Shown here: one piece after another, positions 44,801-54,925 of the stretch
Position numbering within the stretch: the stretch's first letter is position 1
Layout: each line of letters opens with the position of its first letter
Assembly (NCBI GenBank): GCA_029706075.1
Contig: JAINUG010000139.1
Span: 2,463,510-2,527,509, forward strand
Direction: 5' to 3'
Source: Aldrovandia affinis
Lineage: Eukaryota > Chordata > Actinopteri > Notacanthiformes > Halosauridae
DNA: 64,000 bases
Program-made: the position numbers and the translations under genes
The notes under the pieces: generated by a model
Seen by the model: only the letters and a program-made list of their open reading frames with translations
What the model was told of the DNA's origin: nothing
Databases searched by the model: none

Positions 44801-47028
44801 TGATTACAGTCTTTGGACAGTTTTGTTTTTGTTGCACGGGGCTTGGAAGCCTCCGAGGTTGCCTGCAGCCTCTAATTTTTACTTTAATTATTTGGCCATT
44901 GGGTCACTTCAAGAGAATAAATGCTTTCAAACACCTCCAGTAAAGGACCGGTTCAAAATACAATATGATACAATTAAGGCCCTAGACATTTCATATGAAC
45001 GTTTTTTATTATTGCAAAACACATCCTTAAAAGATTATAGATATGACCATTGTCAGTCGTCAGTTTAAATTACTTTTAAAAAAACTGTCAAGGCTTCCCG
45101 GGTGGTCTAGGTTACAACGTTCAAAGCTGGCCACTGCGACTGGGGTTCGATTCCATTGGCCGCGCCAGTATCAGCTCTGGTTGGGAGTGCCACTAGGGGC
45201 CGGCAATTGGCTGTCTGCCCCAGGGAGGGGGAGGGAAGCCGATGCGAGTTCGCTGCGTATAAAACTGGCCCTGTGCGTGCATACCGGAGTTACGGTGATG
45301 GCTTGGTGGTGCCCAGCCACATATCACTGCCAGCATCAGGACCATGGTAGCGAACTGGTAAGATAGATGAAGGAGTGGGATAATTGGATACTAAAAATGG
45401 GGAGAAAAACGGGGAGAAAACAGCAGGAAAATAAAATAGAAAGAAAACCAACAACTTTGGAAGTCACCCATGTTCACCTTAAATCCAAAGACAATAGAAT
45501 ATAATAATAGTAGAAATGCTTGGAATAATTAACTTGTCTACGTAATTAGCATTAAATGAATCCCCTTTATGGAGCTGGTTAATGAAAAAGCATGATGGTT
45601 TGTTATGTAAGAATAGTTGTGTCAGGTGGGGAATATAAAAAATTTAAATTAAAAAAAGTATTTAATGTAAAATGTCCACCTTGTGTTGCAGAACACCGTT
45701 ACATCGAGCTCTTCTTGAACTCAACTGCCAGCGGTGGATCTGAAACGGGTCAGTAAGCTACAATAATGTTTGATTGTACCAGTGTGACTGTGTTTATCGT
45801 TTGATTGTACCAGTGTGACTGTGTTTAGTGTAGGATTGTACCAGTGTGACTGTGTTTAGTGTAGGATTGTACCAGTGTGACTGTGTTTAGTGTAGGATTG
45901 TACCAGTGTGACTGTGCTTTGTGTTGGATTGTACCAGTGTGACTGTTTAGTGTAGGATTGTACCAGTGTGACTGTGTTTAGCATTTGATTGTACCAGTGT
46001 GACTGTGTTTAGTGTAGGATTGTACCAGTGTGACTGTGTTTAGTGTAGGATTGTACCAGTGTGACTGTGTTTAGCATTTGATTGTACCAGTGTGACTGTG
46101 TTTAGTGTTTGATTGTACCAGTGTGACTGTGTTTAGTGTAAGATTGTACCAGTATGACTGTGTTTAGCATTTGATTGTACCAGTGTGACTGTTTAGTGTA
46201 GGATTGTACCAGTGTGACTGTGTTTAGCATTTGATTGTACCAGTGTGACTGTTTAGTGTAGGATTGTACCAGTGTGACTGTGTTTAGTGTTTGATTGTAC
46301 CAGTGTGACTGTACCAGTGTGACTGTAGGATTGTACCAGTGTGACTGTGTTTGATTGTACCAGTGTGACTGTTTAGTTTTGAGTGTACTGTGTTTAGTGT
46401 TTCATTGTACCAGTGTGACTGTGTTTAGTATAGGATTGTACCAGTGTGACTGTGTTTAGTGTATGATTGTACCAGTGTGACTGTGTTTAGTGTAGGATTG
46501 TACCAGTGTGACTGTGTTTAGTGTAGGATTGTACCAGTGTGACTGTTTAGCATTTGATTGTACCAGTGTGACTGTGTTTAGTGTAGGATTGTACCAGTGT
46601 GACTGTGTTTAGTGTAGGATTGTACCAGTGTGACTGTGTTTAGTGTTTGATTGTACCAGTGTGACTGTGTTTATCGTTTGATTGTACCAGTGTGACTGTG
46701 TTTAGTGTTTGATTGTACCAGTGTGACTGTGTTTAGTGTAGGATTGTACCAGTGTGACTGTGTTTAGTGTAGGATTGTACCAGTGTGACTGTGTTTAGTG
46801 TAGGATTGTACCAGTGTGACTGTGTTTAGTGTTTGATTGTACCAGTGTGACTGTGTTTAGCATTTGATTGTACCAGTGTGACTGTGTTTTGTGTTTGATT
46901 ATACCAGTGTAGAGGTGCTTAGCGTTTGATTGACACTGATTAATTTCGTTTCAGGCCGTGGAGGTGGTTTCTATGGTAATTCTGGAAGCATGGGCTCAAG
47001 GGGGGGCAGCCTCAGGGGGATGTTCTAA
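35806..47028 (+). CDS. hnrnph3: hnRNP H3-type splicing factor, three quasi-RRMs
   Basis: RNA-binding protein of the hnRNP H/F family, nuclear, binding G-rich RNA in splicing control. Coding exons: 35806-35893, 36090-36245, 36481-36624, 37470-37608, 42129-42319, 43432-43524, 43608-43702, 44061-44196, 45692-45748, 46955-47028; 1173 nt, 390 residues plus stop, all GT-AG. Three qRRMs carry [22 protein letters not shown] and [11 protein letters not shown] as RNP-like motifs. Between qRRM2 and 3 is a GYR-type segment ([10 protein letters not shown], then [14 protein letters not shown]). The carboxy tail is short (GGSLRGMF) compared with human H3. Mammalian H3 lacks qRRM1; this gene has it. Assignment to H3 rather than H1/F rests on the [13 protein letters not shown] region and on pbld and rufy2 as neighbours. 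Confidence 0.95.
39700..40510. mobile_element. Probable LTR-type insertion in hnrnph3 intron 4
   Basis: GC-richer than its surroundings, with an internal direct repeat: CCTCCAAGGTGGAAATCCCC at about 39749 and CCTCCGAGGTGGAGACCCCC at about 40090, each followed by CCGGGGAACG. A reverse-strand AATAAA-type hexamer occurs near 40020. Ends not resolved. Confidence 0.4.
40735..41285. mobile_element. hAT-type element in hnrnph3 intron 4
   Basis: Ends CAGTGGTTCTCCAACTC and, in reverse complement, CATTGTTTCTCAAACTC. Target-site duplications CTCTAGCT (40727-40734) and CTTTAGCT (41286-41293) match at 7 of 8. No transposase. Confidence 0.82.
42462..42885 (+). mobile_element. Tc1-family 3' remnant in hnrnph3 intron 5
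   Basis: Collinear with the end of the Tc1 element at 21.2-21.45 kb and with the remnant at 22.7 kb: GTATGGAGGAACGGTCAAAG, then GAGCATACAATATAGCTCAT and a second GAGCATACAATATAGGTCAT. The very tip of the inverted repeat is missing. Confidence 0.75.
45090..45450 (+). mobile_element. tRNA-derived SINE in hnrnph3 intron 8
   Basis: Same family as the SINE at 19.6-20.5 kb: head CCCGGGTGGTCTAGGTTACAA, B box GGGGTTCGATTCC, body TTGGGAGTGCCACTAGGGG, tail GGATAATTGGATACTAAAAA. Forward orientation. Confidence 0.85.
45765..46935 (+). repeat. 31-bp minisatellite in hnrnph3 intron 9
   Basis: About 37 copies of a unit close to GATTGTACCAGTGTGACTGT plus GTTTAGTGTAG. Variant units end TTTAGCATTT, TTTATCGTTT or TTTAGTGTTT. 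The core TTGTACCAGTGTGACTGT is nearly invariant. It begins about 17 bp after the exon 9 donor and ends about 20 bp before the exon 10 acceptor, so it fills the intron. Confidence 0.97.
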
Positions 47029-47052
47029 AGGAGCAGCAGATACACACACCCC

Positions 47053-47207: not shown

Positions 47208-47329
47208 ATATATTTGAGATGGTGCATAGGTTAACCAGCTATTGTACATTTTGCTTATTAAATTTTATATTAATCTTTGTTGTCTGAGTCTCTTCACTCA
47301 AAATCATTACCCATGTATTTTTGGGTAAA

Positions 47330-47613
47330 AGTTGGGAACCAGACTTTTTAGCATAATTCAGGTATGCTGAATCCGATAAACCCAAACAAAATGTTGAGTT
47401 TTTGACCTTCTAATTTGCATAACAAAACGGCTGCCAAATTTCAAATTTTCTCCAATAACTCTGTAACCAGGAAAGCAAAAATGACAAAGAAAGTGTCTAT
47501 ACCTATGTTTTGAGGGTCAGATAATGTGATTAAGACAATTCTAAAGTAATCAGTGGTAATCCTACTCTTAAAATATGCAAAATAGCGGCCGCCATTACAG
47601 AAAAACGCACGTA
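47330..47613 (+). repeat. Left terminal inverted repeat
   Basis: Pairs with 52584-52855. Over long stretches the two match with only scattered differences, for example AGCGGCCGCCATTACAG against AGTGGCCGCCATTACAG. Confidence 0.9.
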
Positions 47614-48597
47614 AACGCCGTTTACGTACCTCTTAAAAATACAGTTTGCTCACCTCTATATTAGCGTTTGCACATCTTTTTATTTTGCTGATTCGAGTTT
47701 CCCTATTTTTAAGCGGTGCAGCCGCTTCTATATGTGACACGTGTTTCCGTCCGTGTGTCCGTTCGTAGCATGAGATTTAGACCAATCAGGAGTCACCAAT
47801 ACTGTTGCACACCAGCACTAGAGGGCAGGCATGAGGAATGCATGGCCTGCTTCAGACAGCTCTATCTAAAACAGTATAAATGTTACAGCTATTGACACCA
47901 TATGAATCCTGGGAACAAGATGAACATTTTGGTATATAATATGTCTGTTTAGCTTAAAAACTAGGCCTGGTGACAAGTTAGAAAATGGGTATGTATTCAA
48001 AGTTAGCAGCTCAGAAACTAGAGTGGAGTGCCATTCGTTTGAATGGGGAACATGGTTGTCAAACAAATGGTCATAACTCGAAAACTATAAATCACTTAGA
48101 TAATTACATTTTAAGAATCAGCGGAGTTGTGTGAATATTTCGATGTATAATATGTGTATGAGCTGTTAAAACTGTAAGAGTGGTGGCAGTTTGCAAAATG
48201 TGTGGATATTTTCAAATCACCAGCTGTCACCACCACTTTAGAACTCCACTCTAGCGGCAGTTGGTAATTTCAAAATCCACACACATTCTCTGTTTAACTG
48301 TTGACTGCTTTTGACTACAAGAGACATTCAGTGAGGATCATCACTTGTTCATAAAACTGAAGAAACCAGAAGAAAGCTTAGGGACTCCCAAGAATATCGA
48401 TTTGATCGACCGTCTTGAGAATGTCTTAGATTCTGCTGAAGCCCACACTTGTGTCGCACAAAATATGCTATGCCCACTTCACAGACAAAAGTAAACTTGA
48501 ACGTTTGCAGAAGACGCAGGCAGAGGAACCAGAGCAGACAGCAGTAGGATATTTGCCCGTAGTTCTTGCTCCGGCTCATGAGTTAGATACACTAAAT

Positions 48598-48790
48598 CAG
48601 TGGTTCTCAATCCTCTCCTCGGGGAACCCCAGCCAGTCCATGTATTTGTTAAATTCCACCACCAGCACACCTGATTCAACTAATCAACGCTCGTTAAGTA
48701 GAAATTAGTTGAATCAGGTGTGCTGGTGGTGGAACTGAACAAATACATGGACTGGCTGGGGTTCCCCGAGGAGAGGATTAAGAACCACTG
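48598..48790. mobile_element. hAT-type foldback MITE inside the transposon gene
   Basis: A 193-bp near-perfect palindrome: CAGTGGTTCTCAATCCTCTC at the left pairs with GAGAGGATTAAGAACCACTG at the right, with arms of about 85 bp. Perfect 8-bp target-site duplication CACTAAAT at 48590-48597 and 48791-48798. It splits the coding frame of the transposon protein. Confidence 0.96.
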
Positions 48791-49504
48791 CACTAAATAC
48801 AGTCGTGAAGAGGTGCATGGCAATATCTTCACATTTTGGTCAGGAGCATACAGTCCTTACAGTGGACCAAGCACTATTCTGCAAACTCATGGAACTGAAG
48901 TGGTCTGTCGAAGAATACCGGGATAAATTAATCCCTCGCCTTGGTGGACTTTATACCGCGATGAACTTCCTGAAGGCTATAGGAGATCACATGGCTGGAT
49001 CTGGTTTAGCTGAAGAGTGGCTGGAGAGTGGACTGCTGGGGTGAGGGTGCTGTGCAGCTTGTCCTGTCAGGAAAAGCATACAACAAGGCTCTGAGAGCTC
49101 ACAAACTTACCTTACAAGCCCTGTGGCGGCTTTTGTTGCCAACATTTCTCTTGTTTGCGGCAGAATCGGACAAGGAATGCCATGATGAAATTTCTGCATT
49201 GGCTGCTGATGATGATCCTGAAAGAATTCCAGAGCTGATAACATGCCTGAAGCAGATTTCACAAGCTTCTCACAGATTTCTTGGCAAGTAAATCTGATGA
49301 TGTGAACTCCGTCTTTTGGTGGAACGACATGGACATGGTCTCAGTACTGTTGCAATTCACTCAAGCTCAGTGTGATGGAATCTTGGACCTTCATCTCCAC
49401 TCCTTCAGTCTGATGTTGCCATACTTCATGCGGTATGACAACCTGAACTATGCAAGATGGGGTCCAGTGTATATAGCTGAGATGCATCAACTTGCATTTT
49501 CCCA

Positions 49505-50068
49505 TGGGGCTGCACAAGAAAATGGCTGCCTGGCCTCCAACACATGGCAGCCCAAAACACTACATTTCCCAGCAGGCCACAGTCACACCTGAACGGAGTG
49601 AAGGCAATGGAGCTAACGACCAGCTGAAGGCCATTTCAAGGCCTATTTAAAGGACTCGCTCGCAGCACCTGCTGAGAGGAGTAGGAACGTATTGAGTGTG
49701 TTGAAGGAGAGAGAAAGAGAAGCCTGTGAAGTTGTTGACCAGCCAGGATTTAGAAAGAGAGTGTTGGAGTGTGTTTTTTTGTGAATGAACTTGGATTGTT
49801 TTGAGGACCCCCTTTGGATATCGACTACGGACTGGATTATGGACTTGGACCTGGATTTTGGATTGGATTTTGGACATTGACGACGAGATAAGGATTTGTG
49901 GACTTTGTGTTTGTATTCCCCTGAAGACCCCACCCTTTGTTTTGTGTTGTCTAAACTAATTGTTTATTAAATCATTGTTTTGTTTTTGAATACTGCCTCC
50001 TCCTTGTTCTTAAACTTGCCTACGCCCTCTGCAAGGTCCGTGCGTGTCGCCCAACCCCTGGGGACACC
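49505..50068 (+). mobile_element. LTR-like insert inside the transposon gene
   Basis: This stretch separates two parts of the same protein (EMHQL before, VLSEFQRDNF after). It begins with a TGGGGCTGCACAAG-like end, contains CACTACATTTCCCAGCAGGCC and a purine-rich body with GGACTGGATTATGGACTTGG, and ends near GGGGACACCACA. It has no ORF and could be a solo LTR. Ends and target duplication are uncertain. Confidence 0.55.
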
Positions 50069-52583
50069 ACACCGTGTTATCAGAGTTTCAAAGGGACAAC
50101 TTTGTTGTCAAGCGTTCTGTTCAAAAGTTCAACCAAGTAGATCCAGACCATGCCATGGAGTGGATAAATGGTACAGGAAAGAAAGGAGGTGGAATCATTG
50201 GCATCACAAAGACAACATCAGCGCTTTGTAGATGGACCCTTTCATATAATCTGAGGTCTCACATTGCAGATGAAATGCATGGAATGTACAACAACTGTCC
50301 TGGCAGTACACGTGTTCACAATGAAGCTACCAAATCATGGCAAAAGTGGGACAACAACGACGAAATGCCATTGCTCTTGGCCTTCCAGGGATTCAAGGTG
50401 TTTGATTCAGTTTCACCAGGGTCATTGCAAAATCTTGCCACAAAAGACTTAGCAACAGAGGCAATCCAAAACTCGTTACTTTGTGCCAAAGAACTCGGAC
50501 AAGAAGTGAACAGATTTGTTGAGTGGAGGATGATTGTCCCTGAGCAAGGTGACAAGCCAGATGTCCCAATCCATGTGACCCTACACAGGAGTAATGCCAA
50601 AACGTTTGCATCTCTGTATGAAGTGGTCAAAGACCCCAAAGACAAGGACAAGAGAACTATCCTGAAGGCAGACAGAAACATCCTCCAACGCCTTGTTACT
50701 GCCTATGAGGCAGGTCGTCCAGTTGACTTGCCAGCTGTCCTAAAGCACGAGCTTCTGCCAGTTCCTGTATCACTTGCTGAAATGAATGGTACACTCCGCA
50801 CTGGAAACAAGTCCGTACTGGCAGACAAGTTAACTGAAGACATAGTCTGTCCTGAAGCTACTGAACTTCATGACTCATCGTCTTGCCTCATTATTGATGG
50901 ACAAGCACTGGTGGTTGCTCTGGGAAAGCCTGACAATGCAGTGACCTTTGGTGATTTGGCTGACACATATGTAAGAGCAGTACTGAAGGCAGGTTCTAAC
51001 TACCAACGGGTAGACGTGTTCGACAGATATAGAGAAGAGACAATCAAGGATGCTACCAGGACATGACGCACAAAAGCAGCTCGACCAATCAGACGACTTG
51101 TTGAGGGTCGTGATGTGCCATCTTGCACATTTACTGTCTGAGGAACTGTGTTCTCAGGCACCTGATGATAAGGAGATTGTAGTTGCTGGGGGATTCAGAG
51201 AGGAACTTGAGGTTAGGCCATCAAAGACAACCACTAATTTGACTCAACTGAGAGCCACACATGAAGAAGCTGACACGGGTTGGTGTTACATGCTGTGCAC
51301 AGCCAGTTCAATACAGTTGTTGTGTCATCAAGGGACACTGATGTTCTCGTGCTTTTGGTTTCCCACTTCCCACGTGTACAATGTGAACACCTCTGGATGA
51401 TGTCTGGTACCACTAAGAAACGGCGATATATACCCATTGATGCAGTTTTCAACAACCTACCAAGAGATTCAGTAACAGCTTTGTTACCATTTAATGCATT
51501 AACCGGGTGCGACACCACATCCTACATCGCAAATCACACCAAAAGGTCATCATGGAAAGTCTTCAAAGAGCACCATCAATTACTCATAAACTTGGGAATC
51601 GGTGAACTCACAGAGGAGACCATTCGATCTTCAGAAGTGTTTGTCTGCAGAATATATGATGTGCACAAAACAGACTCTGTTGATGCAGCAAGGCATATAC
51701 TGTTCTCCAAGACTGGTAAACCAGAAGCAATGCCACCAACAAGTGATGCTCTCCAGTTCCATTTGATGCGAGTACACTATCAAGCAATGGTTTGGAGAAA
51801 TGCTCACTGTGCCGTACCTGAGCTTCCTGCACATGTGGACATGGGATGGAAACATGGTGATTCAGGACTTCAGCCTATTCTGATTGAGTCCAATCCCAGA
51901 AGGTTGCCTGGAGGTTGCCTGGATTTTTGCCTGGATTTTGTGTGCATGCCAGAAGCAATGCAAGGCGCGTCAGTGCAAATGCCACAAATCCGGGTTACGA
52001 TGCACATCGATGTGTGCATGTCAGAAACAAAGTGAAGAACTCCTTGCATGAATATGTTCTAGTCCAACAAAGTTTATTCTACCAGACATCAGGATGAGGC
52101 ATTTTGTGAGTGAGACTTCATAATTTCAGTTCTGAGTCAGTAAGACTCGTTTTGAACTCAGAGTTCTGCTTATTTGTATTCATTGAACTGTTTACCATGA
52201 CAAATGTGTCTCAAACTATAAACCGCATATAGACTACAACCAACTCTCTTTCATGGTACTGTTTATTTTTTTATCCATGAATTAAAAATCCTTCCTTCAA
52301 AACCATGACCTCAATAGTCCTTGTGTGGTTCAATGGCCATTGAGAGGGATTGACATAACATATTGCTCTGTGATGCCTGAATAAGCATCAAGGAGTATTT
52401 TGGGGTAAAGTTGGGAACCTGTGCATTGAGCATTGTTACATGGATTGTTGTGTAATTCATTGGTAGCTAATTTGCATAATGAAGCATCTGGCTTATCACT
52501 GATCACATTCTCAGACCCTCAAAACATAGGTATAGACACTAATTTCTCATGTTTGCTTGCCTAGTTACAGAGATATTGGGGAA

Positions 52584-52855
52584 AAATGATTTTTCTGTAA
52601 TGGCGGCCACTAATTTGCATATTTTAAGAGTAGGATTATCACTGATTACTTAAAAATTTTCTTAATCACATTATCTGACCCTCAAAACATAGGTATAGAC
52701 ACTTTCTTTGTCATTTTTGCTTTCCTGGTTACAGAGTTATTGGAGAAAATCGGAAATTTGGCGGCCATTTTGTTATGCAAATTAGAAAATTTTGCTTGGG
52801 AGCCAGGTTGATTGGATTCAGCATATCTGAATTATGCTAAAAAGTCTGGTTCCCA
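52584..52855 (-). repeat. Right terminal inverted repeat
   Basis: Reverse complement of the left end. A second, partial subterminal copy in the same orientation lies just inside it at about 52512-52584 (GACCCTCAAAACATAGGTAT occurs twice). Confidence 0.9.
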
Positions 52856-52868
52856 ACCCCAAAATTCA

Positions 52869-54925
52869 CGTAGAGCCTTATACGGGGCCTTTTTTCAGAA
52901 ATCCTACTAGACTAATACGAGGGACCAATCGCAACATGGCAACGCAAGAATGCAAACGCACTTCATGGGCCATTCCATAGATCGCAAGCTGCTGTCTACT
53001 TCAGTAACACGCATTTAGGTTGTATTATAGGGCAAGTGGATCAATTTAACACTACTGCTGACAAACACAAGGCCTTATCACTGCCTCCTAGAGGATTCTA
53101 AATAAGTAAGGCTGCAGCACTTCTACCAGTCATTAGAGCTTCCCTATAACAGAACACTGTAGGCCACAACCCTACACTCAAACCTGCAGCAAAAGCACTA
53201 GAATCAGGACGATCATTAAAAGTAGCCAGCACCTCAATCACCATTAATACTTCACCATTAACAGACTTCACTTTAAAGGCAATGTACATTTTTGGCCACA
53301 AAATGAATACTTTAGCATTGTGGACAAGGGCATCAAATTCAGTGTACTCACTGTAAACATACAATGGCATTTCTTTAGCAGTTATAACTGCACACACAAT
53401 ATGTGGACTTCCAATTATCTAAGCAACGCAGTGACATCCAATGTTTTTATGAAATGTAAAACAGTTTCTTTTAAATCAAAGATATTAATGGATTAATTCC
53501 AGTTTTGGAGCAATTCATTCAAAGTGTACACAAATCACTTGTTACTTATCAAACGTATATACAATAAATGTATAGGACAGTTTAGTGGTCACTAACAAAG
53601 TTACAGTACAATGTCGCGCCTTTGGCCTTTGTGGGTGAACAAGTGAACTCAGCGTTACATCTAAAACTTGACCAATTAAATTTAAATACTTTTCTGAAAT
53701 AACATCCACAAAATACTGCTTCTTGAAAAAAGTCCAGTTTAACAGTAAATATTTTAATTGACACTTACTGTAAATATTTGCTATATCCTATAAATAATTT
53801 CTAATATTACCATGAGTCTTTAAGAATATAGGCATTTGTCAGTAATCCATTTAAAATAATTACATTAATATAAAACAAAGTTACTGTGCTGTAGTTTCTG
53901 TTCCTTCAAGTTAGTCAGCATTGAGAACAATATTAGGGTTTATGAAAAATACAACTTTCTGAAAAGTTTTCCTCCCTGCAAAAAAAAGAAAAGAACACAC
54001 CTTGTTTTGGCTGTACCATCTGAACTTAATTTCCCAGGCACGTGTGAATTATGAAATCCAGACCATCCCTACCCCAAATAAAAACCAAGTCATGCAACAG
54101 TCTGCTGGACAGAGCAATCTCTACATTTTCACATAAAATAAGTAACAAAAAGGTCAATACAAATATCCTGTTAATTAAACCAGCTCCTCGCAGGACCAGG
54201 GAGCACGTTCTCATTCATTCTACTCCCAGTTTTATGTTCTGTCATTATCTGTATCTAGTGTCTTATGACTTTGTGTCCTTTGCAAACACCCTTAGCTTGC
54301 AGAATTACATTTTCAGGCATTATCCATTTATACAGTAGGATATGTACTGAAGCGATGTAGTACTTGCTCAAGGGCACAGCAGTAACTTTGGATTCATACT
54401 GTTTCACCCCACAATGAGCTTGATTCTCTGTTCAAACCTTTTCATTCTGCTGCTGAAACTCCACAATGAGCCACATCCTTTCTTTTTTAAGAGACATTGG
54501 CCTCAATTCATTCAACATTTGTCCGTAACTTGTGCTAACAACTGAATGCAAGTGGAACTTTTCTCCTTTGCAAAGCTTGGCAAGTTAATTTTGGTGATTG
54601 GCGAACTTGCCAAATTGAAAAAAGAACACTTTATTTCTGAGCGAATCTTAAAGGCAAATGCTTGTTGAACCCAGACCACTGTGTTTCATTGGCATATTTG
54701 AGAATGCAGACAGTCACCATAGATATTGGTCTCACAAAGCACTTCAGACACAGTTGGAAATTAAATGAAAAAGGGACTGGTTTCCCATTGGCTGCCCCCC
54801 TATCCATTGTAAACACATAAGAGGAGGCTGCAGTCTGGGCTTTGCTGCAGCCATTTGGTTTGGAGTTGCGTGGACGAGGCTGAGAGCGGAGGTGGTTGGG
54901 GCCCTAGCGGGCTAGCCCTGCCCCC
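52869..54925. other. Intergenic DNA and rufy2 3' UTR
   Basis: No exon seen on either strand from 52869 to about 54629. The reverse complement of TTTATT at 54630-54635 is an AATAAA about 290 bp past the rufy2 stop, a likely polyadenylation signal; 54636-54925 would then be the 3' UTR. Confidence 0.55.

What the first reader, a model, noticed from the sequence alone, without database searches (positions are those of the whole stretch)
47318..52868. Large TIR transposon coding an XPG-like nuclease with a CXC cysteine tail
About 280-bp inverted ends enclose a long protein with no classical hAT, Tc1, piggyBac or PIF signature. Its carboxy half has HEEADT, DTDVLVLL and TGCDTTS blocks, which look like the acidic metal-binding steps of XPG/FEN-type PIN nucleases, and ends in a dense cysteine array like the CXC of tesmin-type DNA-binding proteins. 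This may be an Academ-type element or a little-described relative. How the nuclease and CXC parts serve transposition is unclear. This is the best candidate for an under-described system in the window.
Basis: partly seen in the sequence, partly recalled or inferred. Interest (0 to 1): 0.8.

Follow-up and report, generated by a model that had tools for sequence, protein, structure and literature searches.

The report
Broken transposon with FEN-like nuclease domain
A decayed copy of a large DNA transposon whose single enzyme joins a P-element-like transposase to a repair-type flap nuclease and a cysteine tail; it fits a kind already named (Academ), and what the nuclease does in jumping is still an open question.

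The parts
47317..52914 (+). Transposon copy as it stands (outermost 40-50 bp missing on the left)
   Evidence: homology to other genomic copies stops at 47317 on the left; the terminal motif ends at 52914 on the right
47317..47605 (+). Left terminal inverted repeat, outer end lost
52590..52914 (-). Right terminal inverted repeat, ends ...AATCCTACTAGACTA at 52914
52398..52540 (.). Subterminal partial copies of the TIR sequence, direct and inverted
   Evidence: D2-D4, I4, I6
52915..52917 (.). Expected right-hand 3-bp target duplication (ATA); cannot be checked because the left end is lost
   Evidence: sequence; inference from the other copies
48445..48597 (+). Transposase pieces matching P0121 residues 75-107 and 590-619, joined directly; the residues between (with D476) are deleted
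   Evidence: tblastn; translation
48598..48790 (.). Nested hAT-like inverted-repeat element (arms 87 nt, 97%), flanked by CACTAAAT on both sides
48799..49041 (+). Transposase, frame 1; holds the position of catalytic D642 (48865-48867)
49031..49249 (+). Transposase, frame 2
49254..49493 (+). Transposase, frame 3
49494..50073 (.). ~580-bp foreign insert in the transposase gene; nature not settled
   Evidence: residues 852 and 856 of P0121 flank it; absent from the C2500 copy L002
50074..51120 (+). Transposase, frame 1: catalytic E884 position (50158-50160), then the start of the nuclease (IIDGQAL 50890-50910, D of FDRY 51022-51024); stop TGA at 51064
51122..51277 (+). Nuclease, frame 2, with HEEADT (51260-51277)
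51280..51927 (+). Nuclease, frame 1, with DTDVLVLL (51334-51357) and TGCDTTS (51502-51522)
51941..52039 (+). Cysteine-rich (CXC-like) tail, frame 2

Best explanation
An inactivated copy of a DNA transposon of the Academ kind (AcademX: transposase plus nuclease). Shown: a multi-copy element with inverted ends that start TAG, 3-bp target duplications, and intact relatives that encode one ~1530-aa protein made of two N-terminal CxxC...HxxC units, a DDE transposase domain with a helical insertion, a FEN/EXO1-type nuclease domain and a nine-cysteine tail (folds by prediction). Inferred: the zinc modules bind the long inverted repeats; the DDE domain cleaves the element's 3' ends and joins them to target DNA with a 3-nt stagger; the FEN-like domain cleaves the other, 5' strand, either at excision (as TnsA does beside TnsB, recalled) or as the 5' flap of donor DNA left after joining, turning a joined intermediate into a simple insertion; gap filling gives the 3-bp duplication. 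The window copy itself cannot do this, having lost D476 and its reading frame.
Confidence: 0.85

Rival explanations
1. Same element, but the FEN-like domain is not part of the strand chemistry; it acts later on repair intermediates (gap or flap processing at the donor or target, or template switching during repair).
For: FEN/EXO1-class enzymes are repair nucleases (established knowledge). Several copies carry right-half segments in inverted order (L010/L025, L011, L017, L020, L041), as expected from interrupted repair after excision.
Against: Near-absolute conservation of the active site shows that it is needed but not when it acts; rearranged copies are also common in DNA transposons without such a domain (general knowledge).
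Confidence: 0.35
2. A distinct, unnamed superfamily that shares the DDE-plus-FEN layout with Academ but is not nested within it.
For: No library sequence was available to test; the only Pfam links are weak (DUF6589 in 20 of 32 relatives at E<=1); no held paper contains both whole words 'Academ' and 'XPG'.
Against: TSD length, nuclease and DDE agree with published Academ statements; Academ is reported in teleosts and bivalves.
Confidence: 0.1
3. A host gene family with a PIN nuclease, by chance bordered by repeats.
For: Uniform domain order in 32 long relatives; source names such as 'Tesmin/TSO1-like CXC domain-containing protein' for coral members.
Against: About 32 dispersed places, with shared ends, 3-bp duplications and partial copies.
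Confidence: 0.02

Closest known systems
AcademX lineage of the Academ superfamily (Kapitonov and Jurka 2010; Kojima 2020; neither held, cited through PMC10045372 and PMC4455052)
   Same: DDE transposase with a nuclease, TSD 3-4 bp; XPG type and a Cys8 finger are recalled
   Different: No sequence-level comparison was possible; nine rather than the recalled eight tail cysteines
AcademH
   Same: Same superfamily
   Different: Helicase instead of nuclease and TSD 9-10 bp (PMC10045372 passage); here 3 bp, and no accepted helicase match in Pfam
P element transposase
   Different: No FEN-type domain or CXC tail; 8-bp target duplications (recalled)
FEN1/EXO1/XPG/GEN1 nucleases
   Same: Fold and seven acidic metal-site positions
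   Different: About 10% identity in the fold alignments; here fused inside a transposase instead of standing at a protein's N terminus
TnsA+TnsB of Tn7
   Same: Proposed division of labour: DDE for 3' strands, another nuclease for 5' strands
   Different: Unrelated nuclease fold, separate proteins (recalled); an analogy only

Membership tests
Academ (AcademX) | DDE/D transposase domain | tested here: met
   fold and invariant D/D/E triad in relatives
Academ (AcademX) | nuclease in the same protein (published as 'nuclease'; XPG type recalled) | tested here: met
   EXO1/FEN1/XPG fold and conserved acids
Academ (AcademX) | target duplication of 3 or 4 bp | tested here: met
   3 bp in 11 of 12 copies; published value from PMC10045372
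Academ (AcademX) | length near the Academ mean of 5565 bp reported for bivalves (PMC10294476) | tested here: inconclusive
   the window copy is 5.6 kb only after a ~1.45-kb deletion and two inserts; distant copies 5951 and 7002 bp; no intact copy of this family was seen
Academ (AcademX) | Cys8 zinc finger (recalled, not read here) | tested here: inconclusive
   nine invariant cysteines CxC-x3-C-x4-CxC-x6-C-x3-CxC-x9-C
Academ (AcademX) | nearest to Repbase Academ proteins in sequence or tree | not testable with these tools
   no repeat library held; the Kojima 2020 paper is not held
AcademH | helicase domain and 9-10 bp target duplication | tested here: not met
   3-bp duplications; Pfam scan of 32 relatives shows no helicase family beyond one chance-level Pox_D5 (E 0.051) in one member
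hAT / P element | 8-bp target duplication (recalled) | tested here: not met
   0 of 12 copies fit 8 bp
piggyBac / Kolobok | TTAA target duplication (PMC9587614) | tested here: not met
   0 of 12 fit 4 bp
Tc1/mariner | TA target duplication (recalled) | tested here: not met
   3-bp duplications such as AAA, CAA, TAC
XPG/FEN superfamily | PIN-like fold with seven metal-site acids | tested here: met
   residue mapping by order and spacing, FEN1 numbering recalled
XPG/FEN superfamily | match to Pfam XPG models by sequence | tested here: not met
   none in 32 relatives at E<=1 nor in 8 further ones at E<=5; the fold comparison is the stronger test
Tesmin/TSO1 CXC | match to Pfam TCR | tested here: inconclusive
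   4 of 32 relatives at E<=1, best 0.0015

The most novel reading that the evidence does not exclude
The element carries a complete two-strand cutting machine in one polypeptide: a P-element-like DDE domain for 3'-strand cleavage and joining, and a FEN/EXO1-type flap nuclease for the 5' strand, a eukaryotic counterpart of the TnsB/TnsA split, with TAG ends and 3-bp duplications kept across families only about 30% identical.
Probability: 0.3. Interest if true: 0.6.

Novelty: new member of a known kind. Interest (0 to 1): 0.35.

Why it matters
Academ elements are little studied: of the held papers seen here, only short passages mention them. The evidence gives exact ends, a 3-bp target duplication and a predicted fold for both catalytic halves, so the open question of why a transposase carries a flap-type nuclease becomes directly testable with point mutants.

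Tried and rejected
Sequence-only routes gave nothing relevant: Pfam on seven window pieces (two chance hits), PDB sequence search with the 83-row profile (0 hits at E<=10), Rfam, tRNA. One scan of viral contigs with P0001 found no relative. The viral fold library gave nothing at E<=0.001 for the DDE model. A special tie to RAG or Transib is not favoured: fold match only, at lower Z than P element. L059 has inverted repeats but its outer termini and TSD stayed unresolved; L060 showed no convincing pair; both are left out of the TSD count. C1989's left end with its flank was not obtained. The identity of the 49494-50073 insert was not settled, because its genome search did not complete. The protein search scored only the 7999 candidates sharing most words, and the genome search scored 30 of 1374 first-look candidates.

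Literature: founding Academ papers and Yuan and Wessler 2011 are not held. Seen as passages only: PMC10045372, PMC10799480, PMC9587614, PMC4455052, PMC4746887, PMC10294476, PMC9783078. All other papers were seen as search listings. Searches.

Full report
What is in the window. Inverted ends are present, and the protein between them belongs to a large family: 283 proteins at E<=0.001 for the 350-aa piece and 170 for the joined reading (where only the 7999 candidates sharing most words were scored; 120 listed in each). Among them are proteins of 1530-1536 aa with 78-87% identity (P0121-P0124). Against P0121 the window copy is broken: about residues 108-589 are missing, two foreign inserts lie in the gene, 17 codons are gone at 51120/51122, and there are several frameshifts and a stop at 51064.

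Copies and ends. The window lies in a 1.22-Gb genome of unnamed origin. The closest named relative is from the sole Solea senegalensis (P0006, 83% over 66% of the piece), so a ray-finned fish is likely but was not tested. Three searches of that genome hit about 32 separate places by my count, matches under ~30 kb apart mostly taken as one; two places on C1782, 27 kb apart, are counted as two. Counts are lower bounds by the tool's own note. A motif scan of the loci then held, with up to 5 substitutions allowed, gave 31 termini of the form TAGTCTAGYGGGATT or close to it. In most, one of two spacers follows (GGCCCCGTATAAGGCTCTACGAGC or TGTGACTTCTACGAGC, with variants and deletions) before the shared repeat. 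The window's right end has the first spacer and ends at 52914; its left end lost this outer part.

Target duplications. Where both ends could be read, the flanks repeat 3 bp in 9 of 10 copies of this family; the exception is C2122 (AAG against AAA). The chance of two random 3-mers being equal was 0.018. In C1535 the flanks...GGATAAGAGCGTCTGCCAAA and AAATGCCTGTAATG..., rejoin as a repeat that stands uninterrupted in L057 (GGATAAGAGCGTCTGCTAAATGCCTGTAATG), with AAA once. Two distant families in the same genome, L057 (31-33% identical to P0121) and L058 (24-32% by piece), also have inverted repeats beginning TAG and 3-bp duplications, TTA and GTA. I set their ends by eye, looking for the TAG start and the repeat together, so these two are weaker evidence than the ten of the main family. 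L059 and L060 were examined and could not be resolved.

Decay and derivatives. In the protein search of the genome (39 matches, 30 of 1374 first-look candidates scored) no match of this family covers the whole protein. Copies L004, L006, L011 and L041 share a breakpoint at 50340 (L004 and L006 lie 27 kb apart on one contig and may be one event copied), and L010/L025, L011, L017, L020 and L041 carry right-half segments in inverted order. This suggests, without proving it, that deleted forms were moved in trans. More distant families in the same genome keep open frames up to 1292 aa without stops inside the matches (C902), so the kind may have been active more recently than this copy.

Protein anatomy. 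In 32 relatives (31 of 1514-1616 aa and P0197 of 1096 aa) two N-terminal CxxC...HxxC units are nearly invariant; D476, D642, E884, the seven nuclease acids and nine tail cysteines are invariant. In the wider set single rows depart at D1174, D1295 and D1297. Pfam sees only DUF6589 (20 of 32 at E<=1) and weakly the tesmin CXC model (4 of 32); the other 20 families listed are chance-level and in one or two members each. Two AlphaFold2 models were made of relatives: P0155 (1145 aa, 83 rows with one protein entered twice, pLDDT 87.7) and P0200 (792 aa, 74 rows, pLDDT 90.1). In the first, residues 703-1064 match EXO1, FEN1, XRN2, XPG and GEN1 (Foldseek's own best E 2.3e-4 to XRN2). In the second, about residues 154-706 match P element, Hermes, ISCth4, RAG1 and Transib (Foldseek's best only E 0.011). 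The order and spacing of the nuclease acids (D1131, D1174, E1272/D1274, D1295/D1297, D1354) follow FEN1's; FEN1 numbering is recalled, with D86, D181 and D233 appearing in titles of matched entries. The ten acids also stand in distant loci L057, L058 and L060, and in L059 except for Y at the first nuclease position.

How it works. Shown: signs of mobility (ends, duplications, dispersed copies); by prediction, a DDE fold with an intact triad in relatives and a FEN-type fold with an intact metal site; a cysteine tail. Inferred: the DDE domain cuts and joins the 3' ends, and the nuclease handles the 5' strand. If only 3' ends are cut and joined to target, donor DNA stays attached to the element's 5' ends as a flap beside a 3-nt gap, which is the kind of junction FEN-type enzymes cut (established knowledge). 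I put the broad identification at 0.85, and the 5'-strand role against the repair-only role at about even odds.

What it is called. A published passage gives AcademX a nuclease and 3- or 4-bp duplications, and AcademH a helicase and 9-10 bp (PMC10045372). Academ is reported in bivalves (PMC10294476) and in teleosts (PMC4746887). The XPG identity of that nuclease and the Cys8 finger are recalled, because the founding papers are not held and no held paper contains both whole words. The features that could be tested fit, apart from length and cysteine count, which are inconclusive; the decisive sequence comparison could not be run. So this is a new member of a known kind, with a catalytic layout that deserves experiments.

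Noticed in passing
48598-48790: hAT-like MITE inserted in the transposase gene, flanked by an 8-bp repeat CACTAAAT.
   Followed up: partly
49494-50073: ~580-bp insert in the transposase gene with TATA-like and poly(A)-signal-like stretches by eye, possibly a solo LTR; part of it (49518-49847) is 84% like a stretch of L027 outside the element match. Its genome search did not complete.
   Followed up: partly
46513-47035: 31-bp minisatellite just upstream of what reads by eye as the last exon of an RGG-rich protein ([23 protein letters not shown] stop); the transposon's left edge lies about 110 bp after a poly(A)-signal-like AATAAA.
   Followed up: no
L057 (905-7906), L058 (1209-7159), L059, L060: Distant families of the same transposon kind coexist in this genome, some with long open frames.
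   Followed up: partly
L010/L025, L011, L017, L020, L041: Copies with right-half segments in inverted order; L011 and L041 share the 50340 breakpoint with L004 and L006.
   Followed up: partly
L016 (G000:C1535:1276016-1276928): A 913-bp derivative inserted in a common repeat that is seen uninterrupted in L057, which makes the AAA duplication clear.
   Followed up: partly
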